A stretch of 64,000 nucleotides of DNA from Branchiostoma floridae. Lineage: Eukaryota > Chordata > Leptocardii > Amphioxiformes > Branchiostomatidae. Both the position numbers and the translations under genes were made by a program. The stretch covers positions 12,010,886 through 12,074,885 of the forward strand of contig NC_049996.1 in assembly GCF_000003815.2 (NCBI RefSeq), given 5' to 3'. Positions within the stretch are counted from its first letter, which is position 1; each line of letters begins with the position of its first letter. Below, in pieces: positions 2,333-27,530 of this stretch. The notes below the pieces were generated by a model. The model saw only the letters and a program-made list of their open reading frames with translations, was not told the DNA's origin and ran no database searches.

Positions 2333-5300
2333 ATGGAAGGAAATGGTGATACAGACGGAGAAAAGTGCTCGGCAACAAGTGAGCCTGTCCCCGAAGACCT
2401 GACGACCAGCTCCCCGTGTCCCTCGTACGAGGAATTTGTCCCCTCGGATGGACAGGACTCAGCAGATGAGCCGCGGATTAATTCTCAGCCCCAGTCACCC
2501 GTCATGGAGAACAGGTAAGGATGTGAATGGGAAAGACTGTTATGAGAAAGTAATGTACATGTACCATAATCTATTCACATCTTATCATAAACGTTTTACT
2601 GTATATGGCTTCTTGATAGCAGGCTGTTAATAATGTTCATAATTTAATATGCAAGTTTCTTTATTGGATTTTTTTTTCAAATTGAAGACCCGTTTGCATT
2701 AAAAAGAAAGATACTTTCGTGTTTATTTTCGCTCTCTCCAAGCCTGCAACCTTATTTCCCTTTGTTGTAGCTGCAAAGAGTTCACAAGCAATGGCGAGGA
2801 ACAGTCACAGCTTCCCTGTCAGCTGTGTGAGGAAGACCCTCCCAGAATAGCCGTTAAGACCTGTACGGTGTGTACGGTGCGGTACTGTGAACTGTGCCTG
2901 GCTCTAACCCACCCGCCCCGCCCGCCGTTTTCGGAACACACGTTGATCAACCCACGGACTTCGTTTAAAAAGGTACGAACAAAAATCACAACGACTGAAC
3001 GCAAAAAAAGTCCTAAGAACCTACATACGATACTTGGTCCTCTTGATTTGTGTGATCATCATCATGATAGCCTAGTATGTTCACGGCGGGACGGGGGCTG
3101 ATACAGGCTTTCCAAGCATCACTGACCCAATAAACTGATCATGATTTTATTTTACGAAAATTCATTTGTCGAGAGTGGCAGGCAACTACAACTTGACGAA
3201 GACCAGGGCTCAAAAATAAATTTTAGACATCGTTTTTGTTGCTTTTATTAATCAAAACTTTAAACTGTTTTTATTACCACCCACAGACGGTGCTGTGCCC
3301 CGACCACCCCACCAGACCAGTGGAGATGTACTGTGTGCAGGACCAGACTCCCGTGTGTCTGCTGTGTGAGAAGGTGGGCAGACACAAGCAGCACAACATG
3401 GCGGCCCTGGAGGAGGTGTTCTCCCAGAGACGGGCCGAGCTGCAGGTCAGGGTGGACCGCCTGGGGGCGTGGTTGTCAGAGGGGGAGGAGATGGTCCAGA
3501 GGCTCCAGGAGAAACAAGAGAATGTGAAGAACAGGTACGTTGAGAAATCACCGGCTTTCCGATCATCACAGGTCTGCGATAGCAAAACATGTTCTGTCTT
3601 CGTCGGCGTCTTTGGGCGCCGCCATCTTGGATTTTGAAGTCGAGTGGGCGCAAACTTATCATCATTTTAGTATTTTTACCAGACGTGCAGTGTCATGCAT
3701 GCAGGTTTTGTAACCCTACGGAAGTTTAAATCGATACATAGGGAATTCATGTCTAATTTTGTTCACTAACATGTTTTTATTTGTTCTAAAGGGTATTGTT
3801 TGCATTTTATAGGGCAGCGGATCTGAAGTCCAGGATCGAGGAGGAATGTGATGACTTGGTCGACCGCATCAGCAGACGTAATACCGAGATGGACCGTCAG
3901 GTGGCGGTAGTCAGCAGCGGCGACACCGCAAATCTCGCGAGACTAATACGTGATGTCCAGGACAACATTCCCAAGGCGCATGCGTCACTGAGCAAGGCAG
4001 AAGACTTGCTCCACGAGACAGACCATGCTAATTTTCTGCAGTCATCGGCGCCTGTAATGGCAGAAATCCGCAGAATGGGCCACATTTTCGGCACGAATGC
4101 AGAAAACGTCGCCTGTTCCATCGACAAGCTCACCGTTGACTTCAGTCAGCAAAAACAAGTGATAGAAACCATGAACATACATAAAAGGTCCGCCCCTGCA
4201 GTTTTCACTCCGCCGCATGGCTTCCCCACGCCTATGAGTCCGTATGTGCAGCAGCATGCGCCTTTAGCTACACCAGGCTATCCTGTTGTCCATGGGCCTC
4301 CTTTTCACACATTTCCAGCTTCAACACCAGCGTTTACTGCGGTACCTACAGCAGTGCACTGCACATGTCCGCCGCAAGGACAACAAGGAATGATGAAGAT
4401 CCGTCAGCCCGCAAGTCAAGGTCAACCCGTATCAACGTTTGCTGCTGGAGGCTATTTACCCCCTGCACAGGTCGCGACGACATACCCCACATGTCCTCCT
4501 CACGTAGGAGCGCCTCCTGGCGTCCGACATCCACCAGCGCAGCCAACAATCTTGGATGACCTTTGCAGTTCTTCTATGCAAGAAATTTACATCTCATGGC
4601 AACCTGTTCACAACGCGGATGAATATGAAGTTCGGTATACAGTTGGAGGCCGCCAAGTGGTCGCGGTTGTGCGTACTTGCTCATTCACGGCGGGCTATCT
4701 GAAGCCAACAACGGAGTATGGGTTCGAAATTCGGGCCAGAAATGTGGCTGGATCGTCTCTACCGAGCATTATCCACCTGGTGACGGAAGGGTATGGTTTC
4801 AAGTTCAGGTTTGATCCCAAAACGGCCGGGCGATTCCTCACGTTTTCCGGCCAGAACACACGCGTAGCAGTGACCGACCGCGAGGACAACCGGGGCGATT
4901 TCTCCGCACGGTTCACCGATGGGAACACAGTTTTGGGGGACCAACAAGTCACCAGCGGAGTTCACTACTGGGAGGTAAGCGGGGCTGGAGCACACTTCGC
5001 CGTTGGTGTCGCCTACGCAAGCATGCCCAGGGACAGGGACATTCGGGACACCAACAAATCATGGGCATTTGTTCAACACGAGAAAACGCAGACGTTCCAT
5101 CACAACGAGAGAACCGTCTCCCGTCACGAGGTCGACATTGTACCGTCCAAGATCGGCGTGCTCTTGGACTACGATGCCGGGCAAATCTGCGTGTACAATG
5201 CGGACAGAGGAACAGTCATCTGCACACACAAGACCACGTTCACAGATCCGGTCTATCCGGCATTCTCTCTGTGGCAGGGCTCCTTAAAGCTCTTTACTGG

Positions 5301-5354
5301 ACTGGTAAGTTGTATTGTTGCCTTCTTGGGTTCGGCCTGTGTTCTTGTGTGTTC

Positions 5355-5408
<54 letters not shown>

Positions 5409-7172
5409 GTGTATATAGCTATTTGAATACACGGTCAGTAGAGGGACATGAAGTTAGTGGGAAGATGGTGTCATCGCAAAGGTAAAAGTTGCGAGAGGGA
5501 GTGACAGGAAGTACAGTTCATAGTTATTTTAGCATGAAGGTCTATTATGAAAGGGCTTTAAACTACTGTTCGGTTGGCCTAACCTTTATTACACTTTTCT
5601 GACAATAGGAAAAACAGCGGACCATGGCCCAGCATCCATTGCGAGAAGAGCCTCTCACGGCCGCCATCTTGGACGCGTTCCCGCCTCAGGAGCAAAAGCA
5701 AATGTTGGGAGAGCGGATCTTTCCAATCGTCCAGGTAAAATCAAAACTAATGACCCGATTCAACACGTTACATTTCAAAGTGTAACGTGCGTAGTAGGTC
5801 AAAGCAAGGAGGTTGGTCAAATGTCTGTATCGCCCCCGTCTCGGTTCTGCTCTGCAGTGGGTCAAAGATGATTTGAAGTCGGTATCGCCCACCTTCCCAG
5901 TTTACTTTTGCAATGGGTTAAAGTGGTTGGAAGTATGTATCGCCCCCCGTCCCAGTTGTACTCTGCAGTGGGTCAAATGTGGTTGGAAGTCGGTATCGCA
6001 CAGAGCAGTGAACACTAATGGAAATCTGTATTGGCGATAAGGTAAAAATTAGCAAGTTCAGGGTGTCATAATCTCATACGTGAACATTCCAGGTCATAAG
6101 AACTCACCCCACACAGCAGCCCGCTATCTCAAGTGTCCAAAAGTCTCATCTTTAAACTTTCTGACCAGCGCAAGATATTTCAGCGGTCAAAACTACAAGT
6201 ACCACCATCTTGCCTTTTCATGACTTCCTTTTAGGGACTGACCACTTCAAAATAGGGGTCAGCACAGGCCGAAAAATTAACCAAAACCTTGTTTTTTTTG
6301 CTGAATCTGAAAATTTTCAACCTACACTGTCTCACCAATATGAAATGATACTTACATTTTCCTGCTAAAAGTCGAAAATAGGCTAAAATACTGTATGGAC
6401 TCATTTTGGGCCTTCTGCGCCTGCGTCAATTAGGGTCATTGCCCCACACCGTCCCGGATCAGTTCTGTGCTTAGTATTATGATTATCACAAATGCAAGAA
6501 CAAAAACTGTTTAATAGGTTACATCGACGTTATAAGATACGCCAAAAAACAGTTACTCAAGCAACTGGATCTAATACTGACGAAAGCTAGTGGATGCTGT
6601 CTGAAACATCTGACTGCTTCCAAAATCATATCCAGCTGCTTGAGCAGCTAACTGCTTTTGGGAGTATAATCTGTTATCAATTATACCGATGTATAAATGC
6701 CCTTACGTATGTATCTGCGGATTATGAAATCTGTTGTAAGCTAGTTCTAATTTTTTTTTTCCTTCACGTTCACAGGAGTCTCATCCCTACCTTGCCGGTA
6801 AGATCACGGGCATGCTCCTGGAAATCGACAACGCCGAGTTGTTACACATGTTGGACAGCCGCGCGTCTTTCAACGCTAAGGTGTGTGCCGAGACTTTCCT
6901 CTGTCTATGCGATTAAGCAGTGATTTAACTTTAGAAAAGAAAGTCCAAAGTAAACCCTGTGACAGTTAACTTGCACATTCGGATCACAAGTGATGAAGCT
7001 ATGATTGGTTTCAGGTTACGATAACGAATTTACGACGATGGCTTCTTGTCTAGATACTGACACCAAATACATTTTCAATTCCGTTTTTCAGGTCGAGGAG
7101 GCGGTAGCCGTGCTGGATGCACACAAAGAGAAGGAAAAGCGTTCCCGAAAACAGTCTGAAAATGGAGAATAA
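2333..7172 (+). CDS. TRIM-A: MID-like TRIM protein fused to a PABP MLLE domain
   Basis: The spliced CDS is 2333-2514, 2771-2972, 3287-3534, 3813-5304, 5609-5734, 6776-6880, 7092-7172, giving 811 residues. All junctions have GT..AG and consistent phase. Order of domains: acidic N-terminus with no intact RING; B-box 1 (about 77-120); B-box 2 (CPDHP, about 132-168); coiled coil; COS box ([10 protein letters not shown]); Pro/Gln-rich linker (337-455); FN3 (456-536); SPRY (538-708); MLLE (723-800) with the diagnostic KITGMLLE. The B-boxes, COS, FN3 and SPRY resemble MID1/MID2, microtubule-bound ubiquitin-ligase TRIMs. MLLE domains bind PAM2 peptides of translation and deadenylation factors. The two paralogues here stop directly after SPRY; in this gene a GTAAGT donor ends that exon in phase 0 and the MLLE exon begins in phase 0. 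The start at 2333 is the first ATG of the exon; further 5' exons are possible. Transcript proof of the fusion is lacking. Confidence 0.8.
5356..5406. repeat. (AT)n microsatellite in TRIM-A intron
   Basis: A run of about 25 TA units sits in the 304-bp intron between the SPRY and MLLE exons. Reading through it gives an artificial Tyr-Ile repeat, which confirms that the SPRY exon ends at the 5305 donor. Confidence 0.9.
5609..7172 (+). CDS. MLLE (PABC) exons of TRIM-A
   Basis: Three exons (5609-5734, 6776-6880, 7092-7172; 42, 35 and 26 codons plus stop) encode a complete MLLE fold. Visible landmarks are [58 protein letters not shown] and [11 protein letters not shown], in the same order as the C-terminus of cytoplasmic PABP. 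Both internal junctions are phase 0. No RRM or other PABP exon lies nearby, so this is not simply the end of a neighbouring PABP gene. It ends in a short basic tail. Confidence 0.82.
5810..6003. repeat. 57-bp minisatellite in TRIM-A intron
   Basis: About 3.5 degenerate units of roughly 57 bp, each with a core like GTCGGTATCGCCC and CTGCAGTGGGTCAAA, lie in the intron between the first and second MLLE exons (5735-6775). Confidence 0.7.
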
Positions 7173-8620
7173 AACGTTGTCTGGTAATAAGATGTTTCAC
7201 GGTTCTAACTGCGCATGTGAGTGGGAATAATATATCAAAGTTGACGACAACAGAGACATGTCTGGACATGGTATACAGCATATAGTGCGGATAGGAATTG
7301 TTTACAAGTTATCCAAATATATAGAGAGCTTCTTCTTTGACACATAACCCATAAAACATTATCCCGCGCATACGCAGTTGGAACCATGTAAAGGCTTATG
7401 GATCGGATCTGTCGCGTCCGCCTTTTTGTCGATGAAATATTGCGCTTCTATACTTTTTTAAGAAGCTGCTCAGCATGGGATCTTCCTATGAAAATACGTG
7501 TGCGCTATCTTAATGCCTTAAATGCTTCATACAGCAGAAAACCGGGAAATGGACATCATCAATCAATCAATGTTTGCGTTCTTTGTCGACCGCCCTTCAT
7601 AATCTAGCTTGAGAGTAAATAAGTAGTGATACAGTTGGGTACAAGATGAAGACATTTGGACAATTTGCGGTAAGTCTCTTTTTTGTGTGCTTTATTTTGA
7701 GCTAAGTCTGCCACTAACTTCCCTCACACATGCATCGGCATGTTTTGGAGGAAAGAAAAGTCGACAAAGTATTCTTCTACATTTTGCAAGTGGTATAACT
7801 ACTAGCTTGAGATATGATACCAAACTTATCACAATTCCTCGTCAGGAAAAGGTTGAATTTGACGTCATATGTTTCAAGGTTACAAATAAGTCACTCTCCT
7901 ACTTAAGACCTCGCCCGCGGCCTGTGATACACTTTGGAAAGGCACTGGGCTGAGGTTTCCACTTTGTTGGCGTGGCCTCTAACCAGCGGCCAGCCAATCA
8001 GGGAATCGGCTTTATGCTTAGCAAACATTTACTGGTTATTCACAAACAAATACAGCATGCGTGTGTGAGATACACAAGTATGGTGTTATCTACATGATTA
8101 TATGTAAACGCAATATACCTGTTTAAGGGAAAATAACACAATATTTGCGTCTACTACAGTACAGATTCACAACATTTCATCGCTGTTAAAACCAAATTAG
8201 TTTTCAAACTATAAAGCAATAATGTCTTTTAAACAGTTACCTCTATTGTCTTTTACACACCCACTAGAACATTTCTACACATGTACGACTTACACACATC
8301 CTTTGCTAATTACTATTGTCTGGCAGACCTTAACAGTGCAGCTAATACTTAAGTGTATTATCAAGTTACACACAGGATTGACAATGAATGGAACATTTCA
8401 TACCTCCATGAAATATTTTCAAAGAAACAAACAAACACACAGATCGAAGACAATACATAGCATCCTAGTACATTCATATACATGATTAATCTGTAAAGAT
8501 CTTAGATCAAAAGCATCTTTGTGTACCTTGGCTTTATCTTGTACATTGGCTATATCTTGATGATTTCAAGCTTATATAGAAATGACATGTGGCCCTGGCC
8601 ATGAACAAGAGTAAAAGATA
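7173..8620. other. Intergenic region between TRIM-A and the transposon
   Basis: No gene is supported. The region holds the TRIM-A 3' flank, a fragment (about 7193-7245) of the dispersed TTCACGGTTTGAACTGCGC repeat, and half of another MITE (about 7950-8010; GAGGTTTCCACTTTGTTGGC) whose full-length relative is at 57568-57840. Short open frames at 7398, 7687 and 8222 show no recognisable domain. Confidence 0.5.
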
Positions 8621-8723
8621 CTTCATGGTTTGAAGTATACAAGCGTAGTGTGATGCATCGTGGGTTATATGAGAATTTGAAGGCCCCACTAATCAAACAT
8701 ACACCATTGTCATTCTTTATGTT

Positions 8724-11190
8724 TTAAGGTCTCGGGCCGGAGTTTCTTTTACGATTTCGGAGGTTGGCAGGCAGCCTCAGGCCGAAGGGCTACAGTTCCG
8801 CTAGTAAACGTAGGACGCGAAACTTAATCAATATGGCGGAAAGCCGTTTACTGTCTCTTTCCGACAAACCTATTGGTACCGTCTGTTGCCTCTTTATTTT
8901 GGTTAGAATATGTAGCAAAATTTTAATTTTGGACCCGAAAACTATCATTTTTTAACCCTTTTTTGATCGAAGCTGCTTGGAAAAAACGAATTTTCCCAGG
9001 ATAACGGCCTACGTGGTAGAGAAGCTAAATTCTTCATGTTTGTGCAAAATGAAAATAAAAAAATTCCATGTGATAACTTTTTTGCAATCTCCGATGACGT
9101 CATTTCTTCGAAATCGCATGAAAAACGCCGCTATTTGGGTCATCAGGCGAAAAAACCGCATCACCGTTGCAGCGGACTAATACAAAAATGGTTTCGCTGG
9201 CCGACCAACTACTCCTCGCACAAAAACAATACAACCCACGGGCTTTTCAGAAAATACGACAAATCTATGCTCAGCTATAACGATCACCAAGCCATAGGGA
9301 GCAAAAGTTAGGGAGACAACAGCGCACTTCCGGCCTATTACACCACCCTTCCGCCAACTCCGGTCAGATTTGAACTCCGACCCGGAACCTTAAGAGGGAC
9401 ATTTTTTCTCAATATGTACTTTTATTACTTAAAAAGTTCATATCTACCATATGTCCAAATTTGGTTTGTCTCCGATGGTTACTTTTCCCACAGGAGCGGT
9501 TTAAAGTCAGGTCAAAAACACTGTATTTTGAGGCTATCAAGCCTAGATGCATATTGAACCTACGTTATAATACAGAAACATTAAAAAACATGCTTTTTTC
9601 TGACATCGCTTTTCTGTAAACGGATAAAATGGGGTGCAAAGTTTGCCCATAATCTTGTCCGGGAAAGTATGTGCACTCTCCGTCGTTTCGGTGCTACACA
9701 TCGGTAGAAAACCGTCTTTAAAAGTTGGCATCGCTGACGTCACGGAGTGACGTCAGAGGTTGCTCAAGGAAAACAGCAGGGGGTCGCGTTTTAAGTTCGT
9801 CGCTTGTAAGTAAAATGAAGAATGTGCCAGATTTTGACATGGAGCAGTAGACCAGATCTCACACTTTCAGAATCAAACGCGTCCGACACCAAACTCTTAA
9901 CTACTTCGCCGTGAACGGCCCCTTAAGAAGCACAATGCGCCCCAAATGTGTGCAAGAATGCATTCTTACACAGTGAAAAGCACAAACTGGATCTTATTGT
10001 CGGCGCTAGAAGCGGGCAGTTGGAATAAGCGCGGCAAAGATGTGTAGTGCTTTTAATAGGCTATTACTACATACCACCGAAAGAAAAAAAGATCGCCGCG
10101 TTAAGGAGCTATGAACCGAAAGTCAGTAAACCCAGTTTCTCCTTAAGTTAGGGCTTAAAGCACCAAGATTTCAGCTTTAATGCCCATTTAAGTCATACTA
10201 ATGCACGGCATCGCGAACATATGCGATAGGTGAACGACAGAGGTCGGCTCCAATCAAATGACATAGAGAAAGATATGATTTTGGAAAATTCTGCCCGCCA
10301 GAATCGATTAAAGTTGCCCGTAATGGTAGTTCTAAGGGGGGGGGGGTGAAAAAGGGGGAGGGGGGCGCCTAGGGCCTGTACATGAATATGCTGACTTTTT
10401 AACTAGAAAAATGAAAAACGGTGTTTGTTTTTACACAATATAACGACATCTGATGGAAACTTTAAAATGCGTCGAAATTACGTCATCTATGACGTCATAT
10501 AAGGTACAAGCGCCGCCCTATTAAGGTCTCGGACCGGAGTTTCTTTTACGATTTCGGAGGTTGGCAGGCAGCCTCAGGCCGAAGGGCTACAGTTCCGCTA
10601 GTAAACGTAGGACGCGAAACTTAATCAATATGGCGGAAAGCCGTTTACTGTCTCTTTCCGACAAACCTATTGGTACCGTCTGTTGCCTCTTTATTTTGGT
10701 TAGAATATGTAGCAAAATTTTAATTTTGGACCCGAAAACTATCATTTTTTAACCCTTTTTTGATCGAAGCTGCTTGGAAAAAACGAATTTTCCCAGGATA
10801 ACGGCCTACGTGGTAGAGAAGCTAAATTCTTCATGTTTGTGCAAAATGAAAATAAAAAAATTCCATGTGATAACTTTTTTGCAATCTCCGATGACGTCAT
10901 TTCTTCGAAATCGCATGAAAAACGCCGCTATTTGGGTCATCAGGCGAAAAAACCGCATCACCGTTGCAGCGGACTAATACAAAAATGGTTTCGCTGGCCG
11001 ACCAACTACTCCTCGCACAAAAACAATACAACCCACGGGCTTTTCAGAAAATACGACAAATCTATGCTCAGCTATAACGATCACCAAGCCATAGGGAGCA
11101 AAAGTTAGGGAGACAACAGCGCACTTCCGGCCTATTACACCACCCTTCCGCCAACTCCGGTCAGATTTGAACTCCGACCCGGAACCTTAA
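8724..11190. mobile_element. Composite TTAA-flanked transposon with 670-bp direct repeats
   Basis: Two 670-bp segments, 8724-9393 and 10521-11190, are near identical over their whole length (a G/A difference in the ninth base after TTAAGG was noticed) and are separated by 1127 bp. Each begins TTAAGGTCTCGG and ends CCGGAACCTTAA, so each is itself bounded by inverted repeats and TTAA. The whole block sits inside an older MITE, consistent with one insertion at a TTAA target, the preference of piggyBac-type transposases. The repeats carry identical short open frames (63, 67, 91 codons) that resemble no transposase I know. No autonomous transposase is visible. Confidence 0.7.
9394..10520. other. 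Central segment of the composite transposon
   Basis: This single-copy segment contains no convincing coding region. It carries two TGACGTCA palindromes 13 bp apart (9735-9742 and 9748-9755), a G-rich run near 10337-10368 and more TGACGTCA-like sites near 10490. Confidence 0.4.
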
Positions 11191-11268: not shown

Positions 11269-14200
11269 TCAATATGGACAGATGATGCCAGTGTGCACGC
11301 TGATAGAGCCGTGCCACAGGGAGAATGCCGGGTACAGGGGCTGTTTGAAGCCGTTGGTCTTGTGGTGGAAGATCAGACTCCGTTTGTCCGCATCGTAGAA
11401 GGACAGCTCGCCCAAGCCGTGGTCCACCAGCACCCCGATCTTGGTCGGATGCTTCACGTACTTCTCGTAGTAGTCCACTACTTTACAGTCGTGCTGGATG
11501 TAGTAGGATGTCCCGTGCCGATCGAACGCCCATGACCTTGACGTCAGTCGTATGTCCTTGTCTCGTGGCATGTCTCCGTAGGCCACGCCCACGCTGTAAG
11601 ATATGCTGTCTACACTGACTTCCCAGTATTGCCTGCCATTGGTCACTGGGGTGTCCCCGAGAAATGCATTAACCAAATGTCCGGTTTTGTACACTTTAAC
11701 GCAATCATTCCCGGTTGACACCTGGAGATAACACATGTCGACTGTGTTTGGGTCAAGGCGGAACTTGATCGGGCCTTTTGTGATCAGTTGTATGGTGCTC
11801 GGAGTAGAGGTTGCAATGTCACTGATGGATTTGACATTGAAGCTGTACATTGTTTCTGGAGTGAGTTTCTTCGCTGTAAACGTGTTTGACTTGACCTTGG
11901 TGGACATCAGAATATCGTCGACTTTGTACAAAACCTCGTAGGCGATGGCGTCGGCAACCGGAGCCCACTCGACACAAGCTTCCTCTGTGGTTGTGCTGCA
12001 GTTCATGCCGAGGATCATTGGGGCCGCAGGGGGCGCTGCTGTGACAAGCTCAATGATGCTGACTGCAGATGTCACGTTGTATTTCATTGACCTGACCTCG
12101 AATGTGTACTTGGTTCCTGGAGTCAGCTGCTTAGCTGTGAATGTGTTGGAATCGACCTTGGCGGACATCAGAGCATCTCCGACTGTGTACAACACCTCGT
12201 ATGCAGAAGCGTCGGCGACCGGAGCCCACACGATACAAGCTGTGGTTGTGCTGCAGTTCGCGTGGAGAATCATTGGAGCTGCAGGGGGCGCTGTTGTGAC
12301 AAGGTCGATGCCAGCTTCAGCAGAAGCTCCGTTGTCGTTCATTGACCTAATGCCGAATGTGTACTTGGTTCCAGGAGTCAGTTGTTTGGCTGTAAATGTG
12401 TTGGAGTTGACTGTGGTGGAGATCAAAACATCATCGACCTTGTACAGAACCTCGTAAGCAATGGCATCCTCGACAGACGCCCACTCAAGGCAAGCCTCGT
12501 CTGTGGTTGTGCTGCAGTTCATGCCAAGAATCATTGGAGCAGCAGGAGGAGCTGTTGTGACAAGCTGTATGCTTGCTGCCTCAGCAGAAGTGCCGTTGTC
12601 GTTCATTGACCTGATCCTGAATGTGTACTTGGTTCCAGGAGCTAGCTGCTTAGCTGTAAATGTGTTGGACTTGACCTTGGTGGACATCAAAATGTCTCCA
12701 ACTTTGTATTGAACTTCGTAAGCCCAGGCGTCGTCAACCGGCTCCCACACGACACAGGCTTCCTCTGTGGTTGTGCTGCAGTTCATGCCGAGGATCGTTG
12801 GAGCCATAGGGGGCGCTGCTGTGACAAGCCGGATGCTTGTCTCTGCAGAAGTGCCTTTGTCGTTCCTTGACCTGACCCTGAATGTGTACTTGGTTCCAGG
12901 ATTCAGTTGCTTAGCTGTAAATGAACGCCCCCTAACGGTTGCAGTCAGGTTTACACCATCTACTTTGTAACGGATCTCGTATTCATCAGCCTCATCCACG
13001 GGCTGCCATATGATGTAAGCTTCTTCCAAACTGGAGCTGCACTCTTGACTGTGAATGGTCGGGGCTTCTGGGGGCTCTCCGATGTCGAGAGACTCTAACA
13101 TTTCTTCAATTCCGGTTTTACTGAAGTCGATCGTTATATCATCGACCTCATATGTGTGCTCGACTGCCATGGCAGTGCCTAGCATGCCTCTCGAGCTGCC
13201 AAGTTTTGCCGCCACTGCCGCTTCTGTTAGCAGGAAGCTAGCGGGGTCTGTTTCCTCCAGGGCCTCCCGCGCGTAGGCCAGCGACGAACGTACCTTGTGC
13301 ACAGCGCCCTCTGCATTGCCCTTCGCTTCCTCTAGCTTTGCTGCGTCCCCCTGCCTTGCAAGCTCCACCTGGCGGTTCATTTCCGTACTGCGCCCGAAAA
13401 TGATTCGGTGAAGTCCGTCACATTCTTCATTGATTTTCGGCTTAAGTTGTGCAGCCCTGTGAAAAAAATGCACACATAAAACAAACATCACTTTTTCCAC
13501 ATAAAACTACCTGTTAAATGTATTTTCTAGATAGATACCTGAACTTAAGAAGAAATATAAAGTATGACAATCAACAGCATCTCACCTAGTCTCAACATTT
13601 TCTCGTTTCTCCTCCAGCTCCCCAACCGTCTCCTCTCCCTGTCTCAGCCACGCCTCCTGGTGGTCCACTAGGGACTGCAGCTCCGCCTGTTTCTGAGAGA
13701 ACACCACCTCCAGGGCCGCCATGCCATGCTCTTTGTGCCGACCCAAAATGCTACAGACCGTACACACAGGAGTCTGGTCCTGTACACAATACAGCTCCAC
13801 TGGTTTGGTGGGGTGGTCCAGACACATAACATGCTGGTCCTGGAAAAACAATTCAAAAATATGTAGGACTGGCTATTTTGGCGCGGCATTACGAAAAATT
13901 AACAAATCAGCTCAGGGATGTCTTAGAAAAAGGTTGCCAATTGGCCATTAGTGTCATTACATCCCAGCTTCAAGTTCTGCATTCTAACAGATCATGTACA
14001 TACAAGAATGCCTCACAGGCTCCGCTCCTGAGGCGTCGCCAAAAATGATGCGATACTGACCTCGTCAAAAGTTGTCCTTGGATCGACGAGTTCGTGTTCC
14101 GTAAACGGCGCGTGGTTAGGGTGCGTGACTGCCAGGCACTGTTCACAGTAAGACACCTTACACTCCAGGCAGCTTTTGGCCGCCATCTTGGCAGGCCTTT

Positions 14201-18826: not shown

Positions 18827-21800
18827 ATGGAAGGCCTAGGGGAGGAACTGACGTGTCCGGTATGTTTGGAACTGTTCACGTGTCCGCTACAACTGCCTTG
18901 TCATCACAATCTGTGTCGCAGGTAAGACCTTTGATGCGAAAATTTGATGGTTATAAAAACATCTCGAGATGAAACATTTTGAGATGCTTTGAAAGCAGTT
19001 GGAAAAATCTTGAGATTATTGTAAAGAATCTTGAGATTTCATGAAAGATCTTGAAATTGTTATGAAAAATCTTGAGATTTCTAAAAAGATCTCAAGATCT
19101 AGCAAAAAATCTTGAGATTTTTCAACTAAATCTTGAGATTTGTTCAACGAGGTGTAAAATCTGCTCACTGTTTTAAATGTATAATGTATTTTAATGGATT
19201 AATGCAGACATAGGGCAGAGGGTGAAGGATTCTCTAGCTCAAATCAAACACAAGGACATATAATCATGGTCCTTGATCGCTCTTTGCAACGGACGAGTTT
19301 CTTACCTTTCACCGACATTGTATCATGCAGTGTCAGAAAATTTTGTCTCTTTGCACAGATGTGCAGAAGTTCTGCTTCAGTCTGAGGCGGATTCTAGCCA
19401 GGACGATGAAGAGGCAGCGGCCTGCTCGGGAGCGCATGCAGCTCCCGAGGCTACACCGGATAGCTTCCCCTGCCCTACGTGCCGAAAGGACGTCACCTTG
19501 GACACACGTGGTCTAGATGGACTGATGAAGAATTTTCTCCTTCAAAATATAGTAGAGAGGTGTGTCTGAATATTTATTATTGATCAACAAATTTTAGCTG
19601 CAGAATACCAATTTTGATGATGACATGTGCCTGATGAAGTTAAACTACCACTTTTGTCATATTCCTAATCCCATGGTCGGGTTCTGCCTTTCAGACCGCA
19701 GATAATTGTTATTTCAAACTTGTATACAATCAGATTGTCTTTTGTGCGTTTATGAAATCTAGTTATTATATATAAAAAGGAGGTCATGGGTGTACTAATG
19801 CTTAATGCCGGTAGGTCGCCGAGTATTTAATTTTTTCGTGTAATAGACCACAACACTTGTATGCAATCGGATTACCTTTTGTGCGTTTATGAAATCCAAT
19901 TAAAGGAGGTCATGGGTGTACTAAATGCTTTATGCAGGTAGGTCACCGAATATCCAGTTTTTCGTGTAATAAACCACAGCACTTGTAGGCAATCAGATTG
20001 TCTTTTGTGCGTTTAAGAATCTATTTAAAGGAAGTACTCATGCATATTTGAAAATCATCCATCCCAAGGTACATGAAGCTGAAGGGCAACACTGGATCGC
20101 AGCCAATCTCTTGTCAGCTCTGTAAGAGCGCCCCTCCCAAGATGGCCGCCCAAAGCTGTCTGACGTGCAAAGCGTCGTACTGTGAACAGTGCCTGACTCT
20201 TACACACCCCGCCTTCCCGCCATTCACTGAACACAAACTGGTCAGTCCAACAACGTCTTTTGACGAGGTGAGTGTAACAATGTCAAGGGCAAGACTACGA
20301 AAAACATGTGTTAACAGAGAAGAATATGATATGTCATTTGCAAGATTTTATATAGGGTCTGATTACCAGATAATTACACCTACTATACATGATTGTTTGG
20401 TACTCATTGAGGTTTGCATCAATTTTCATGTTTATGTTTATCAGGAAACCTCATTAGTGAAACATCGTGTAAATAGTAATCTTCATAGGGTCATTTACAG
20501 CATACGCAAAAATACAATACAATTACATATTTACTAAATGCACATTTTTGTGTACTGATACATACCCTAAAACTAAAATTACAATTACTTAATAATAACT
20601 AAAATCTATTATTACTTACTTATATATAGAGAGAGTTTTAGAAGCTAAAAAACTTTATAGTATAAGCACGTGCGTCTGGACACGTAGATTGATACATGTA
20701 TTTTTATTAGATTTCCAGATGTCATGTGATAGGGTATAAGGCTTATGTGTGTTGATAGGGTATAAGGCTTATGTGTGTTATAAATATAAAAATATCATAC
20801 TGTACACTTGCTTAATGGTGTTACATTCTNNNNNNNNNNNNNNNNNNNNNNNNNNNNNNNNNNNNNNNNNNNNNNNNNNNNNNNNNNNNNNNNNNNNNNN
20901 NNNNNNNNNNNNNNNNNNNNNNNNNNNNNAATTGTTGGTACATGTTAAGGTGTCGCCGCGCATGCGTATTCGGAAGTGTGAGCCTATCTTTTCAACAAGC
21001 AACAACTAACAACACGAGAACTTAGCCTTCTTGGCGAAGGTATTAAGGGCCTCGTCAGAAGTCGTCTGATAGAGTCTTGATATTGATACCAGTGGTGACA
21101 TCATTACCTTCGCTACCCTTCCTTACCCAGACGTTTATGTTTTGGGTGCTGTCCTTCGGTGGTTTATTGGTTGGGTGTACTTATTTTATGGACAGCATGC
21201 CTCGAGAAGTTAGTGCTGTGTGTGTGTCCGTCTGATATTTGTTAGGTACCTGATATTCATTTTGGTCTGCAAAACAAAGTTCGATACTGGGTCTCCTAAA
21301 AGAGTCTTTGGTAATTCAACGGAACTTCTGGTTTGATATCTCGTGTTTTTTTTAATAATCTGTTGATGTTTACCAATTTAACTCTTCTCTTTTACTAGTA
21401 CAAAGGAGTTGAAGACTCAAATTGATGAGCAGTGTAACAGTCTTATGGAAGTGATCCGACAACGCAGTGAAGAAATTCACCAAAAGCTGCAGCGTACAAC
21501 AGATCAGGATGATGCCAATCTACATGAAGTCATCAAACGGGCAACTGACGGCATGCAGAAGGCGCGCACAGCCCTGTCTTACGCACAGGAGGCCATGGAG
21601 GAGACTGACCACGCCAGCTTACTGCTGACTGACCAGACGGTGAAGGCTAAAATAGAGGCTACCATCAAGACTTTGAACACCAATGTCAAGGAGGTCAAAT
21701 GTGAGATTGACAAGATGAACATTGACTTGAAACATTGGAAAGAAGACTTAGAGAATATCGACATTGCTTCACCCCCTGCCGCCCCTATTATCAAAGCCGA

Positions 21801-22593
21801 CGAATGCGGTAGCACGATGGAGGAAGCTCGTGTTGTGTGGAATCCAGTGGAAGAGGCTGATGTCTATGACATTCGTTATGCAGTCGGCAACATTGACACT
21901 GTTTCCACTGTTAGAGGTTTGTCATATACAGCCAGAGGCTTGGCGCCTGCGACAAAGAACAAGTTTGAAGTCAGTTCTAAAAGCAAAGCTGGCAGGTCTT
22001 GTCCAAGCACCATCGAACTGGTCACAATGCCGTTCAAATTCCAACTGGATCCCAACACGGCTTCAGAGCACCTCTTACTTTCACGGGATAACACTCGCGT
22101 AAAATGCATAGAGTCCCCGTTGTCTCTTCCTGACGTATCAGTGCGTTTTGGCACAGTAGCAGAAGGCACTGGGCACTCGGTTCTAGGCGACAAGTCTATC
22201 AAAAAAGGTCGGCACTACTGGGAAGTGAGTGTCGAGGGGGGTATGTATAGCCTAGGTGTAGCCTATGGAGACATCCCTCGAAACAAGGATATTATCTTCA
22301 CCACACAGTCGTGGGCGTTTGACCTCAATTCCTTGACACACTCCAAATATATTTTCTATTCTAATGGAGAGAAATTGTTTACAGTGAACATCAGTCCACT
22401 GCTATCCAGGATCGGCATTCTCGTCGACTACGATAATGGTCAACTTTCCTTCTTCAACGCATCTACCGGAGCCCTCATTTACACACACACCGAAGAAAAC
22501 GGATTTGATAAGCCACTCTACCCGGCGTTCACTGCAGATTCACAGTGGCCTCGTGTGTCCGTAATTTATACTCCCCATGCAAAGGGTTCATAA
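18827..22593 (+). CDS. TRIM-C: MID-like TRIM (RING, B-box, FN3, SPRY), one exon in gap
   Basis: Visible CDS exons: 18827-18921, 19359-19559, 20069-20267 and 21399-22593. The first two encode a RING (CPVC, CHHNLC, then CPTC and [18 protein letters not shown] as in MID1), the third B-box 1 ([16 protein letters not shown]), and the last coiled coil, COS box ([10 protein letters not shown]), one FN3 and SPRY ending at a TAA. The B-box 2/coiled-coil exon, about 250 bp in both paralogues, is missing from the visible sequence, and a 100-N gap lies exactly in the intron where it belongs. Splice phases before and after (0 and 2) fit an exon of the paralogues' length class. Expected role: microtubule-associated E3 ubiquitin ligase. 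The gene is probably intact, with the exon lost to assembly. Confidence 0.85.
18960..19150. repeat. Tandem AATCTTGAGATTT repeat in TRIM-C intron 1
   Basis: About nine variants of the partly palindromic unit AATCTTGAGATTT, including TCTCAAGATC in the opposite sense, form a short satellite in intron 1. Confidence 0.75.
19710..20035. repeat. Three ~120-bp tandem repeats in TRIM-C intron 2
   Basis: Three units share TCTTTTGTGCGTTTATGAAATC, here quoted as TTTTGTGCGTTTATGAA, GGAGGTCATGGGTGTACTAA and TTTTTCGTGTAATAGACCAC. A diverged fourth fragment (CGTGTAATAGACCATAATAC) lies upstream of the gene near 18585. Confidence 0.75.
20728..20778. repeat. Direct repeat beside the assembly gap
   Basis: The unit ATAGGGTATAAGGCTTATGT occurs twice in a row just before the gap, a common reason for an assembly break. 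Confidence 0.7.
20830..20929. other. Assembly gap (100 N)
   Basis: Exactly 100 N, so the true size is probably unknown. It interrupts TRIM-C between the B-box 1 exon and the coiled-coil/FN3/SPRY exon. Confidence 0.99.
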
Positions 22594-23502: not shown

Positions 23503-25842
23503 TCAAGTAGTGAAGTGGTCTCCCTTCAGTATTCTGTGTGGCAGGACTAACGTACAGCATGACATTCCCGTCCACGCCTCGGGTAAATCCCAGGCAGCCT
23601 TCCACACGTCCCTGTCGGGGTCGTAGCTCTGCACGTCCGAGAGGGTCTCGACCCCGGCTCGGGAAGTCGTGTTACGGGTGAGCCCTCCAAGGAGATAGAT
23701 TCGACCTTCCAGGATCGTACATCCGGGTTCTGACATTGGTACTAACATGTCTTCCACCATTGTCCACTGGTCCACTTTCGGGTTGTACCTTTCCACAGTT
23801 GCGGATGTCTTTAAGACTTTTGTCGTAGATAAGAAAGTCCCTCCCAGTACGAAGAGTTTCCCGCCCATAGCCACCATGCGATGGAAGGTGCGAGCAATTT
23901 GCATAGGTGCCATGTTGATCCATTTACGGTCTTTAGGACAGAAGCTTCGCAATGCATCCTGGTGCTCCCATCCTACATTTCCGCCGGAAACGTAAACCGT
24001 CCTGTCGAGTGTTGCGCCTGCGTGACCGTAGAGTGATTTAACGTTCAAAGGCGTTGTGAACTGCCATGCGTTCGAGGATGGACAGTAAACCTCGACTGAA
24101 GACAGCTCACCCTTGGCGTTTCGTCCTCCGATGGCGTAAATTTTCTCGTCGAGGACGCATGCGCAGAAGTCAGCACGTGGCTGTTGAAGGGACGCCACCT
24201 GCAGCCAGCTGTTGAACCTGGGATCGTACCTCCAGCAGGTGCTCGACGCCGATCGGGAACTTTTGTTGGCTTCACCTCCAAGCAGATACACGAAATTATT
24301 CAACACCGCTACGGCACGATGGGTCAGACAGTCTTTCGCCGTTGTCAGCGTTGTCCATTGGGAGGTTAGGGGGTTGAGATATTGCACTTTATTGGTCCTC
24401 CCTCGCCCATCACGTGACTTGATTCCTCCAATGGCAAGAAGGCATTCATGGAGTGCCCTAGGTTTGGTGCAAGCGTTCTGCTGTAACGGCTGGGAGTATT
24501 GGTCCTTGTGGTAACGGAGAGCCTCCTCCAGCTTTCGTTGGCAGCTGCTGTTCCCGTATACTACGCTAGAGGTCGCCACGTTATTTTCTAGGTACGCGAT
24601 TTGCATGAGAGGAAACCGAATGTGTTTCATGATGGAGTTTGTGAATTCCAGACGATCTTTTTTGTGACAAAGCCACTTCAGTGCGGCTTCAAATGCGTCT
24701 TCTTCACTAACGTTCAAGGAGTTGCTCATGAGTAGACAGGCGACCTTGAACATGGGAAGGTCAAGAAAAGCATCTGTTTGAACGAACGTTGCGAAATTCT
24801 CGGCGAGAAATTTGTCCAACCGTCCCTGCACCATCAACATGTGATAATCACTTGCAACTTTAGATATCTTTGCGCAGGTCGAGATATTAATGTTGGACAG
24901 CAAGAAGTCACCGCAAAGGTTAGTGAGTATTGCACATTGCAGGTAAAAACTCAGGTCCACCACATTTTCTACTTTTTCCATTGATAGCGTAATCTTTGAA
25001 GTGTACGCAAAAGTCACAACTGACTGTAGACTAGAAAAGTTCACGCCTACTAGTTGTACTTTCCCACTTTTCGCCTCCATCATACCAGCCGTAAACATGG
25101 CGCGAAAGTAGTCGCTAAATATCGCGAGAACTACTTTGTGCGCCGCGAGAGTTTGACCACCTGCTTCTAGGATGACGTCACAAAGCTTCCCGTCATGCCT
25201 CATGGCACACAACTTCTCTAATACGAAATTTCCGTGACTTGTCGTAAAGGTCGTGCTCCGAGACTTGTGGCAACCGAAGTTTTGACACACTTCCAGCAGA
25301 GGTTCAATCTGCAGACGAGATGCCAAGATTCTAATATCTTGGTAACTGTCAGAATCTAGGACTATTCTTGAAGTGTATATAAATTCAAGTAGGCTCTCTA
25401 CTGCATGACAGCTAACGTCCTTCCATAGTGCAGAAGTCCATTCTACTTGTGTAGTAGATGGCGGGATCTTTCCCAGTTCGAAGGCAAGCTTGTCAGACGC
25501 CACGGCTAGTAGTACTCTGTGCGCGAGAAAGACTTTCCTTCCCGAGCGAAGTTTCACGTCGCAAAGCACACCGGCTTTCCTCATGTCGTTACAACGACGG
25601 AGAAAATCGGTTGTGTACACTGCTGAAGTGTAGGTCCTCTGATAGGTTTGTGATCGCTGAGGTAGAAGTTGTTTTGGAGGAATATTACGACTTGACCGCT
25701 TCTTGGACGACCAGTCTCTGGGTGCAATGCTGCTAGCTTCCGCCGGAGGCCGCTCTTCCCTGCTACTGCTCGGTAAAGCACTGGGTACGTAGGAGGGGAA
25801 CCCGACGACTTGGGGTATGTGACGTGTTGTTGTTCGCTCCAT
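23503..25842 (-). CDS. Kelch-like protein with two BTB domains
   Basis: One long minus-strand exon encodes 779 residues from the ATG at 25842. An acceptor (TTTTGTCAG) lies just upstream, so the longer open frame reading into intron sequence is not used, and a 5' non-coding exon is likely. Domains: Ser/Arg-rich N-terminus (1-75); a divergent BTB (about 77-189, VLCDVKLRSGRKVFLAHR); a canonical BTB (about 205-315, LCDVILEAGGQTLAAHK, then YFRAMFTAGMMEAKSGKVQL); BACK (about 320-430); six kelch repeats (about 468-770; LLAIGG, VYLLGG, IYAIGG, VYVSGG, LFVLGG, IYLLGG). KLHL proteins usually dimerise by one BTB, recruit Cullin-3 and bind substrate by the kelch propeller. Two BTBs in tandem is unusual for this class. 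I cannot assign an orthologue. Confidence 0.87.
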   Translation of the reverse strand: MERTTTRHIPQVVGFPSYVPSALPSSSREERPPAEASSIAPRDWSSKKRSSRNIPPKQLLPQRSQTYQRTYTSAVYTTDFLRRCNDMRKAGVLCDVKLRSGRKVFLAHRVLLAVASDKLAFELGKIPPSTTQVEWTSALWKDVSCHAVESLLEFIYTSRIVLDSDSYQDIRILASRLQIEPLLEVCQNFGCHKSRSTTFTTSHGNFVLEKLCAMRHDGKLCDVILEAGGQTLAAHKVVLAIFSDYFRAMFTAGMMEAKSGKVQLVGVNFSSLQSVVTFAYTSKITLSMEKVENVVDLSFYLQCAILTNLCGDFLLSNINISTCAKISKVASDYHMLMVQGRLDKFLAENFATFVQTDAFLDLPMFKVACLLMSNSLNVSEEDAFEAALKWLCHKKDRLEFTNSIMKHIRFPLMQIAYLENNVATSSVVYGNSSCQRKLEEALRYHKDQYSQPLQQNACTKPRALHECLLAIGGIKSRDGRGRTNKVQYLNPLTSQWTTLTTAKDCLTHRAVAVLNNFVYLLGGEANKSSRSASSTCWRYDPRFNSWLQVASLQQPRADFCACVLDEKIYAIGGRNAKGELSSVEVYCPSSNAWQFTTPLNVKSLYGHAGATLDRTVYVSGGNVGWEHQDALRSFCPKDRKWINMAPMQIARTFHRMVAMGGKLFVLGGTFLSTTKVLKTSATVERYNPKVDQWTMVEDMLVPMSEPGCTILEGRIYLLGGLTRNTTSRAGVETLSDVQSYDPDRDVWKAAWDLPEAWTGMSCCTLVLPHRILKGDHFTT

Positions 25843-25859
25843 CCTCCCTGTACGGCCTG

Positions 25860-27530
25860 ACAAAAACAAACAAAGTAAAATTAGTGATACTGACAAGTTC
25901 TATATGCACTGGCACTGATAGTACATTGTTGATATTGGTGATTTGTTTATTTTCCAGACAAGAACCTAATCTTAACAACCTATTTATAGCACATTCTCGT
26001 CTTTTCTTATGGTCACACCATATGCCTTTGTACTATATGTGGCGTCTCATGTTAGTTGTTTGTCTTGGTGATTTGGTTTCGACAGGAACTTTTTGTGTCC
26101 CATTATTCTCCGTCTGACACGTGACACGTGTTATACAAGGTTACTGAGCCCACCTAAGTATAAAACAAACACCCTTCGTAGGTAAATACTTCAAACTGCC
26201 AGTGGTAAGACCAAAATCCGGGTTTAAATCAAATCACGGAGCTATTCTGGCTTTAACAAAGCCTACGTGACCGCGCATGTAGAACCAGAGTAAAGTTAGG
26301 GTAGGTAAACTGTGGGTGAATAAAGTCTGTCAGTAAGCGGTGTGTACTAAACGTTTGATCAACAAGAGGACAGAAGATTACACATTAGCGAAAAGATTCC
26401 CGGGGGGTCGAAACAAAAATAACACTGGAAAACGCTGAACGAATGATATTTGCCAAAATGTTTAGCAATCCCTTTCCTATTTTTTGTAGAAGACCGGTCA
26501 GTTATGCTATATGCAACACATTTCTGACGTCATGTGTTCAATTCCCCAATCGGCCGTTGTCGTTCACATTCGTCGTGGGTCCTTCTATGATTTTCATGTC
26601 GTAGCATTTTAAAGCAGGCTTAGACAGAAGCAACCGCCAAGGATTTAGACATCCTTTTCGGTAACAAGACAGTTGTATTTTGTACGACAGGTGCACAACT
26701 TTCCCAAGAAAGTTTGAAATTAATCGTTCAATCAACGTACGACGTATGTCACCGGTCCCTGACCCAGAATACCTTACAATAAAGATGTTGTTTTGTCCTC
26801 GTATACAAATTGCTTTTCAGTCACACCACACTAGAGGTTAAAAAACTCACGATCATTTTGGACACCGCCATTTCCAGATCTTTGAAGTTTTTTCAGATGG
26901 GATCTCAGTCGGTCAGCTGTGGCCATAGTTTATTTGGCCGGTCTACAATGATAAATGCCGCTAGAGGGGTTAAATATCACGCTTCCATAGGGGGCAAAGT
27001 CACGGGCACTGAGCGTCAATAGGCCCGAACAGATTCATGTCAGCCGGTCGCATGGCAATACATGGCTGGTCAGTAATTCGAGTCAGTGATGTGTGTGGTG
27101 ATATAGAGTGACTGGGCCAAATTTCAAAATAAATTTTTCAAAAAAGAAGATAACCATCCAATTTGGTAGCTAAGTAGCTGACACATCATTTTCCCGCAAT
27201 AGTTGGAGTTTCCAATGCTGTAATCGGGTGCCGACACCTTCTGGAACAGCCTGGCATAACATGGGTCTACGTCGGAGGGGAGGGGGGGGGGGGGTAACAA
27301 ATTGATGTGACACCGGTAAAAATGTGGTCAAAACATGAAAATCATACTACAGTAAATTTACTTCGCGCATTATTATTCTCACATTTCTCATAAATATGGT
27401 TATTTTAATTTCTTGGTGTTAGATATTATATCATTGTAGTATTGTACGCACCATTCTATGAAACGTCAAAGTTTTCTACTGGTAATTACACACCACGTTT
27501 TCTTCAAAAAGAGCAACAAAAAGAACTCCT
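25860..27530. other. Intergenic region between the kelch-like gene and tRNA-Glu
   Basis: No gene is supported. The 5' flank of the kelch-like gene is here. A G-rich run lies at about 27276-27294. Confidence 0.4.

What the first reader, a model, noticed from the sequence alone, without database searches (positions are those of the whole stretch)
2333..7172. A MID-type TRIM protein fused to a PABP MLLE domain
Seen: the SPRY exon of TRIM-A ends at a GTAAGT donor in phase 0, where both paralogues have their stop codon, and the next three exons encode a full MLLE domain with KITGMLLE, each junction in phase. Known: MLLE domains occur mainly in cytoplasmic PABPs and in the HECT ubiquitin ligase UBR5, and bind PAM2 peptides of Paip, eRF3, ataxin-2 and TNRC6-type proteins. 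Inferred: an exon-shuffled TRIM that can reach PAM2 proteins or poly(A) RNPs, convergent with UBR5. I know of no described TRIM with this module.
Basis: partly seen in the sequence, partly recalled or inferred. Interest (0 to 1): 0.92.

Follow-up and report, generated by a model that had tools for sequence, protein, structure and literature searches.

The report
TRIM-like protein carrying PABP's MLLE domain
In this lancelet-like genome a TRIM-family gene appears to have captured the last three exons of the poly(A)-binding protein gene, giving an immune-type scaffold a domain that normally recruits mRNA regulators; a second TRIM gene seems to have done the same independently.

Summary
Window 2333-7172(+) reads as a 7-exon, 811-codon gene: B-box1-like, B-box2, coiled coil, FN3, SPRY, then a complete MLLE (98.8 bits). 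The SPRY/MLLE junction and both MLLE-internal junctions are phase 0. The genome's PABPC gene on C17 splits its MLLE at the same two places and phases, so the module came as PABPC's last three exons, introns included. It is no neutral debris and all 18 PAM2-groove residues examined are kept. Correction: no RING was found, and exon 1 looks like a decayed copy of the exon that codes the second half of the RING in the two window paralogues (same place, same phase, CPxC lost). So "a ligase convergent with UBR5" is not supported; a RING-less adaptor is likelier. New: at C7:24538124 a RING-bearing TRIM exon is followed, in frame through an intron shared with paralogues, by a retroposed PABPC 3' end with intact MLLE: a second, independent, TRIMCyp-like TRIM-MLLE candidate. 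No transcript data were available; splicing across 5305-5608 is inferred. A separate MLLE transcript (ACCATGG at 5625) is the main rival.

The parts
2333..2514 (+). TRIM-A exon 1 (residues 1-60 plus 2 bases): probable relic of the RING second-half exon; CPSY where the two window paralogues have CPIC and CPTC
   Evidence: aligns to the TRIM-B exon with score 61 (1 of 2000 shuffles as good) and to the TRIM-C exon with 47 (7 of 2000); same phase-2 exit
2771..2972 (+). exon 2: B-box1-like zinc finger (PF22586, 24.9 bits, under its 27-bit cut-off)
3287..3534 (+). exon 3: B-box2 (PF00643, 39.6 bits) and start of coiled coil
3813..5304 (+). exon 4: coiled coil, proline-rich linker, FN3, PRY/SPRY; ends CTG|GTAAGT in phase 0 with no stop
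5305..5608 (+). intron 4 (304 bases, with an AT repeat); the junction at issue; no AATAAA or ATTAAA in it
5609..5734 (+). exon 5: MLLE part 1, counterpart of PABPC exon A on C17
6776..6880 (+). exon 6: MLLE part 2 with KITGMLLE; same length (105) as PABPC exon B
7092..7172 (+). exon 7: MLLE part 3 and stop, counterpart of PABPC exon C; AATAAA at 7168 overlaps the stop codon
11269..14721 (-). TRIM-B paralogue (RING-half exon 14721-14518, B-box exons, FN3 repeats, SPRY, no MLLE), used as comparison
19360..22593 (+). TRIM-C paralogue (RING-half exon 19360-19559, B-box1, weak FN3, SPRY, no MLLE; spans the N run 20830-20929), used as comparison

Best explanation
TRIM-A is a fusion gene. The last three exons of the PABPC gene, with their introns, were copied behind the SPRY exon of a B-box/coiled-coil/FN3/SPRY gene, whose stop was lost and replaced by a phase-0 donor (shown: anatomy and exon correspondence; inferred: splicing). 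The MLLE binds PAM2 peptides as PABPC does (inferred from 18 of 18 groove residues). Because the RING exon seems to have decayed, the protein most likely works as an oligomeric scaffold: the coiled coil makes it multivalent, the SPRY binds one ligand and the MLLE binds PAM2 proteins (eRF3, Paip, ataxin-2, TNRC6 type), competing with or bridging to PABPC (all inferred). Any ubiquitination would need a RING-bearing partner. A separate TRIM gene on C7 seems to have acquired the same domain by retroposition and still has its RING, so a PAM2-directed TRIM ligase is plausible there.
For: Gene model and phases. Domains. MLLE exon breaks Q|(N/E)SHP and K|VEE identical in place and phase 0 to C17 PABPC, middle exon 105 bases in both. 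C17 has PABPC RRMs about 10 kb upstream on the same strand. TRIM-A MLLE against C17: dN 0.284, dS 1.87 over 97 codons. Of 69 core codons, 29 differ in TRIM-A where C17 and C7 agree: 21 synonymous, 8 not. These are changes between TRIM-A and the C17/C7 pair, not rooted to TRIM-A: if all are TRIM-A's, omega is 0.12 and P 3e-8; if only 10 of the synonymous ones are, omega 0.24 and P 0.003. Neutral simulation: 14 or fewer amino-acid changes without a stop in 0 of 3000 runs at 0.2 or more substitutions per site, 0.44 at 0.1. Groove 18 of 18 identical to human PABPC1 against 25 of 41 other positions, Fisher P 0.0012 (residues from passages of PMC2854688). Closer to PABPC1 (119 bits) than UBR5 (51 bits). 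RING relic. PAM2 motifs exist in this genome: 13 matches at E up to 10, 12 marked over the cut-off.
Against: No RNA. No second lancelet genome to show that the junction is conserved. Exon 5 holds an ATG in ACCATGG context at 5625 that could start a free MLLE protein. Binding is untested. Selection on the MLLE does not prove that it is translated with SPRY. No structure was predicted. The first half of the RING was not located in TRIM-B or TRIM-C either, so that the paralogues carry whole RINGs is not shown.
Confidence: 0.73

Rival explanations
1. Two genes: a SPRY-ending TRIM-like gene and a short separate MLLE-only gene starting in intron 4, translated from the ATG at 5625 (about 98 residues).
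For: ATG at 5625 in ACCATGG context. The SPRY frame could read 37 more codons to a stop in the intron. A free MLLE could act as a PAM2 competitor.
Against: GTAAGT donor exactly at the end of SPRY, where 12 of 15 other loci have a stop within 19 codons; no AATAAA or ATTAAA in the 304-base intron, the only one in 5301-8700 being at 7168 at the MLLE's stop; the read-through is largely an AT repeat.
Confidence: 0.13
2. Assembly chimera or misjoin that places PABPC exons beside a TRIM.
For: The model rests on one assembly.
Against: No gap near the junction. The MLLE exons are not a copy of C17: dS 1.87.
Confidence: 0.03
3. Decaying exon-shuffling debris without function.
For: The RING-half exon of the same gene looks degenerate. 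The count of 21 to 8 is unrooted; at a branch of only 0.1 substitutions per site neutrality would not be rejected.
Against: dS 1.42-1.87 to C17 makes so short a branch unlikely; 0 of 3000 neutral runs fit at 0.2 or more; splice sites intact; 18 of 18 groove residues.
Confidence: 0.03
4. UBR5-like: a RING-bearing MID-type ligase that ubiquitinates PAM2 proteins.
For: TRIM parts plus MLLE. A RING exon more than 10 kb upstream cannot be excluded: an acceptor-like AACAG lies just before ATG 2333, and my searches did not find the first RING half of the paralogues either.
Against: No RING in 10.2 kb upstream by pattern and tblastn, the tblastn having found the second halves in TRIM-B and TRIM-C; in-frame stop 15 bases before the ATG; exon 1 lacks the CPxC cysteine.
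Confidence: 0.1

Closest known systems
Cytoplasmic poly(A)-binding protein PABPC (C17 in this genome; human PABPC1)
   Same: Same MLLE, same exon breaks and phases as C17, all 18 groove residues of human PABPC1
   Different: TRIM-A has no RRM match; the MLLE sits behind a B-box/coiled-coil/FN3/SPRY scaffold
UBR5 (C328 in this genome: best PDB matches Hyd and UBR5)
   Same: A non-PABP protein of the ubiquitin field with an MLLE
   Different: HECT ligase; TRIM-A's MLLE is nearer to PABPC1 (119 bits) than to UBR5 (51 bits), and no catalytic domain was found
Rrm4-type fungal RNA transporters
   Same: MLLE outside PABPC; PMC9249222 (passages) says that besides PABPC1 only UBR5 and Rrm4-type proteins with MLLE were described
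   Different: RNA-binding protein with three MLLEs; no TRIM part
TRIM5-CypA (TRIMCyp)
   Same: A TRIM scaffold that gained a ligand-binding domain of a housekeeping gene, repeatedly and independently (abstract starts of PMC2924388 and PMC4378998 in the listing; abstract of PMC6677749). The C7 locus is like it in mechanism (retroposition)
   Different: Captured domain is PABPC MLLE; TRIM-A itself arose with introns, not by retroposition
MID1/MID2-type (B-box, coiled coil, FN3, SPRY) TRIMs (layout recalled)
   Same: Domain order after the RING
   Different: No RING found, MLLE gained
Makorin MKRN1
   Same: E3 that binds PABPC1 directly (abstract of PMC6805484)
   Different: Works the other way round: as I recall it carries a PAM2 motif for PABPC's MLLE

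Membership tests
MLLE domain (PF00658) | Full-length profile match over cut-off | tested here: met
   98.8 bits against 27, positions 2-66 of 66
MLLE domain (PF00658) | KITGMLLE signature and PAM2-groove residues | tested here: met
   18 of 18 (list from passages of PMC2854688)
MLLE domain (PF00658) | PAM2 peptide binding | not testable with these tools
   needs protein
TRIM/RBCC family | RING finger | tested here: not met
   none in the model or in 10.2 kb upstream; exon 1 looks like a RING-exon relic. Limit: the same searches did not find the first RING half of TRIM-B or TRIM-C
TRIM/RBCC family | B-box(es) followed by coiled coil | tested here: met
   PF00643 39.6 bits, PF25600 32.6 bits, both over cut-off; B-box1-like 24.9 bits is under its cut-off of 27
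MID-type (C-I) TRIM | FN3 then PRY/SPRY | tested here: met
   fn3 27.5 bits and SPRY 53.2 bits over cut-off; PRY 24.6 is under 27.5
MID-type (C-I) TRIM | COS box and microtubule binding | not tested
   -
UBR5-like ligase | Catalytic HECT domain together with MLLE | tested here: not met
   no HECT among the Pfam matches of TRIM-A at E up to 1
TRIMCyp-like retroposition fusion (C7 locus) | Intronless cDNA-derived domain joined to a TRIM exon in frame | tested here: met
   three PABPC exons joined without introns plus PABPC 3' UTR, in frame through a shared intron; the splicing itself is inferred

The most novel reading that the evidence does not exclude
Lancelet TRIMs captured PABPC's MLLE twice, once by exon shuffling and once by retroposition, as TRIM5 captured cyclophilin. 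The MLLE serves as bait: an integrated decoy or a homing domain on an innate-immune scaffold, sensing foreign or host PAM2-type ligands or bringing a RING (C7 gene) to poly(A) ribonucleoproteins.
Probability: 0.15. Interest if true: 0.92.

Novelty: new variant of a known kind. Interest (0 to 1): 0.72.

Why it matters
MLLE has been described in very few proteins (PABPC, UBR5, fungal Rrm4; PMC9249222, passages). A TRIM scaffold with a maintained MLLE, and a second independent candidate in the same genome, would tie innate-immune or ubiquitin scaffolds directly to translation termination and mRNA decay factors. It would show that TRIMCyp-type capture is not limited to cyclophilin or to mammals. 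The PABPC donor, the exon borders and the retrocopy are all preserved, so the birth of both fusions can be traced.

Tried and rejected
PAM2-like motif in exon 1 ([10 protein letters not shown]): looked like a cis ligand for the protein's own MLLE, but the PAM2 profile search did not list it (13 matches, none at this place), the leucine and alanine of the consensus quoted are missing, and the stretch aligns to the RING relic. I treat it as chance.

RING upstream of TRIM-A: a strict pattern (both strands upstream) and a relaxed half-RING pattern (+ strand upstream) gave nothing; tblastn with the C7 family RING gave nothing convincing upstream but did find the half-RINGs of TRIM-C (E 3e-7) and TRIM-B (E 0.013). 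Limit: the strict pattern found no RING anywhere in the window, and the first halves of TRIM-B and TRIM-C were not located; Pfam gave no RING over cut-off for the TRIM-C piece. On rereading I raised the RING-bearing rival from 0.08 to 0.10 and lowered the best explanation from 0.75 to 0.73 for this reason.

Selection: my first count (21 synonymous to 8) is unrooted and drops codons where C17 and C7 differ; one search was added to show how far the result bends.

C7 MLLE as part of an ordinary PABPC gene: disfavoured; none of the 9 RRM matches lies on C7 and a TRIM exon lies about 550 bases upstream. A 29-residue match on C14 (66%) was not followed up, so a further PABPC-like gene is not excluded. 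C7 as neutral retro-pseudogene: disfavoured, not excluded. It differs from C17 at 31 sites in 88 codons, by codon position 8/1/22, 9 amino acids; the 3' UTR differs at 43 of 211 with 25 gap columns. If the C7 branch took half of the UTR divergence (0.10 per site), 9 or fewer changes without a stop has P 0.0003; at 0.07 it is 0.056 and at 0.05 it is 0.45.

I know of no other lancelet genome in the collections offered. Metagenome scans were capped at zero.

Literature searches for the architecture: amphioxus+TRIM+MLLE (1 paper, on rotifers by title, unread); MLLE domain+UBR5+PAM2+TRIM (0); TRIM+amphioxus+B-box+SPRY (2, unread); Branchiostoma+tripartite motif+TRIM (17, 16 listed; passages of two read); PABC domain+B-box+TRIM (0); MLLE+Branchiostoma floridae (1, on bivalve miRNA by title, unread). 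In PMC3503706 and PMC11788884 the terms MLLE and PABP do not occur in the main text. No TRIM-MLLE turned up; subscription journals and protein databases were not searched.
Full report
Where it is. The window is C18:12010886-12074885 of a 513-Mb genome in 431 contigs.

Observation. The gene model has seven exons with GT-AG introns and one 811-codon frame. Pfam finds, in order, a B-box1-like finger (below cut-off), B-box2, TRIM coiled coil, FN3, PRY (below cut-off)/SPRY and a full MLLE at 98.8 bits. The SPRY exon ends CTG|GTAAGT in phase 0 and the three MLLE exons enter in phase 0. The FN3-SPRY search of the genome listed 24 matches, of which 20 became loci. One search looked at those 20: TRIM-A itself, four repeats of genes already counted, and 15 distinct others. 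Of the 15, 12 stop within 19 codons of the aligned end and 3 run 31-40 codons. Only TRIM-A has GTRAG exactly at the domain's end; L030 has one 19 bases further on.

Origin. A PF00658 search of the genome gave 9 matches at E up to 0.001 in five loci: C7 (1), C17 (2 exons), C328 (1), C18 (this gene, exon 6 only) and C8 (4). C17 is a PABPC gene: RRM matches at 96-97% lie about 10 kb upstream on the same strand (the query was typed from C17's own exons). The other RRM matches are 25-40%, apart from 29 residues on C14 at 66%, not followed up. C17's MLLE is coded by exons of 135, 105 and 75 bases, all phase 0. TRIM-A's are 126, 105 and 81 with the same two break points. The MLLE is therefore PABPC's last three exons, taken with introns and joined through an intron to SPRY. 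Over 82 aligned residues TRIM-A shares 62 with C17 and 60 with C7, and C17 shares 73 with C7. C328 matches Hyd and UBR5 best.

Selection and binding site. TRIM-A against C17 over 97 codons: dN 0.284, dS 1.87; over the 69-codon core dN 0.156, dS 1.42. In the core, where C17 and C7 agree and TRIM-A differs, 21 codon changes are synonymous and 8 are not. With no outgroup DNA these cannot all be laid on TRIM-A's branch. If they are, omega is 0.12 (P 3e-8); with 12 synonymous changes on it 0.20 (P 0.0005); with 10, 0.24 (P 0.003); with 8, 0.30 (P 0.018). In neutral simulations 14 or fewer amino-acid changes without a stop (14 of 69 observed) came in none of 3000 runs at 0.2-0.7 substitutions per site, and in 44% at 0.1. 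The residues that line the PAM2 groove in human PABPC1 are named in passages of PMC2854688. All 18 that I took from these are identical in TRIM-A and C17, and 17 of 18 in C7; elsewhere in the stretch TRIM-A matches human at 25 of 41 (Fisher P 0.0012).

In TRIM-B and TRIM-C the exon before B-box1 codes what looks like the second half of a RING (CPIC, CPTC; tblastn with the C7 RING, E 0.013 and 3e-7) and leaves in phase 2. TRIM-A's exon 1 sits at that position, leaves in phase 2 and aligns to the TRIM-B exon with score 61 (1 of 2000 shuffles as good) and to the TRIM-C exon with 47 (7 of 2000), but has CPSY in place of CPxC. No RING was found in 10.2 kb upstream. The limit is that these searches did not find the first RING half of TRIM-B or TRIM-C either. 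I favour a scaffold or adaptor over a ligase.

A second TRIM-MLLE. At C7:24538124 an intact RING/B-box/B-box/coiled-coil exon belongs to a family whose eleven nearest full-length copies are 67-86% identical. Seven paralogue loci are held (L039-L045). In two (L039, L040) the exon ends at a phase-1 GTGAGT donor and continues in frame, after 576 and 589 bases, into a further exon; the L039 one matches a DTX3L KH-like domain and a RING. A third, L043, has the same donor and acceptor motifs 519 bases apart, but my script built no in-frame model for it. The other four do not show this arrangement: L041, L042 and L045 end differently and L044 runs into Ns. In the C7 gene the matching donor (CAG|GTGATT, weaker at +5) and acceptor lie 543 bases apart; the frame reads ASLLFS, as L040's reads AASLLS, then turns into PABPC: GYRYTANMRNPPSG and on to MLLE. 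DNA similarity to L039 runs through 6090-7910 (80% over all), PABPC similarity starts at 7920, the three MLLE exons are joined without introns, and PABPC's 3' UTR follows. That is a retrocopy landed in the second exon of a TRIM gene. Its 88 codons differ from C17's at 8, 1 and 22 sites by codon position; neutrality is rejected if the branch is as long as half the UTR divergence (P 0.0003), borderline at 0.07 per site (P 0.056) and not rejected at 0.05 (P 0.45). Read as spliced, the protein has 533 residues with RING, two B-boxes and MLLE at 107 bits. The splicing is inferred, and a free MLLE protein from this copy is not excluded.

How it works. Shown: anatomy, donor, constraint, groove. Inferred: splicing, PAM2 binding, oligomerisation, competition with or bridging to PABPC. 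PAM2-like motifs are present in the genome (13 matches at E up to 10, best 7e-5, 12 marked over cut-off). The main rival is a free MLLE protein from the ATG at 5625 (ACCATGG); against it are the donor at the SPRY end and the lack of AATAAA or ATTAAA between 5301 and 7168.

Known or new. PMC9249222 (passages) states in 2022 that besides PABPC1 only UBR5 and fungal Rrm4-type proteins with MLLE were described. Six literature searches found no TRIM with it. The nearest precedent for the event is TRIMCyp, which arose independently more than once (abstract starts; abstract). A 2012 survey (PMC3503706, passages) already reported unusual lancelet TRIMs with two MATH domains, so lancelet TRIM shuffling as such is known. 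I file this as a new variant of a known kind.

Noticed in passing
L015 6125-8269 (G000:C7:24538124-24540268): RING/B-box/coiled-coil TRIM exon followed in frame, through an intron shared with two or three of its paralogues, by a retroposed PABPC 3' end with intact MLLE: second TRIM-MLLE candidate.
   Followed up: yes
L039, L040 (G000:C7:24633917 and 24622284): TRIM exons that continue in frame into a further exon, which in L039 matches a DTX3L-type KH domain and a second RING: TRIM-DTX3L-like genes.
   Followed up: partly
L011 9544-9831 and L012 298-2192 (G000:C8:7559543-7562191): Tandem MLLE modules on one strand (four matches over the PF00658 cut-off), about 6 kb downstream of Cupin_8/JmjC and EF-hand exons; a multi-MLLE gene outside PABPC and UBR5, limits unresolved.
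   Followed up: partly
window 2408-2460: PAM2-like [10 protein letters not shown] inside the RING relic of the same protein that has an MLLE; not found by the PAM2 profile.
   Followed up: yes
G000:C14:6125159-6125245: A 29-residue stretch 66% identical to the start of PABPC's second RRM: possibly part of another PABP-like gene.
   Followed up: no
window 8967-9311 and 10764-11108: Two copies of an identical 114-codon open frame, 1.8 kb apart: a direct duplication.
   Followed up: no
window 23503-25899 (-): 798-codon open frame with BTB (two stretches), BACK and Kelch matches and no intron within it.
   Followed up: no
window 46788-48002 (-) and 56888-58346 (+): Pieces of two sialyltransferase-like (GT29) genes in opposite orientation.
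   Followed up: no
window 11272-13506 (-): TRIM-B carries five FN3 stretches in one exon between coiled coil and SPRY, against one in TRIM-A and one below cut-off in TRIM-C.
   Followed up: no
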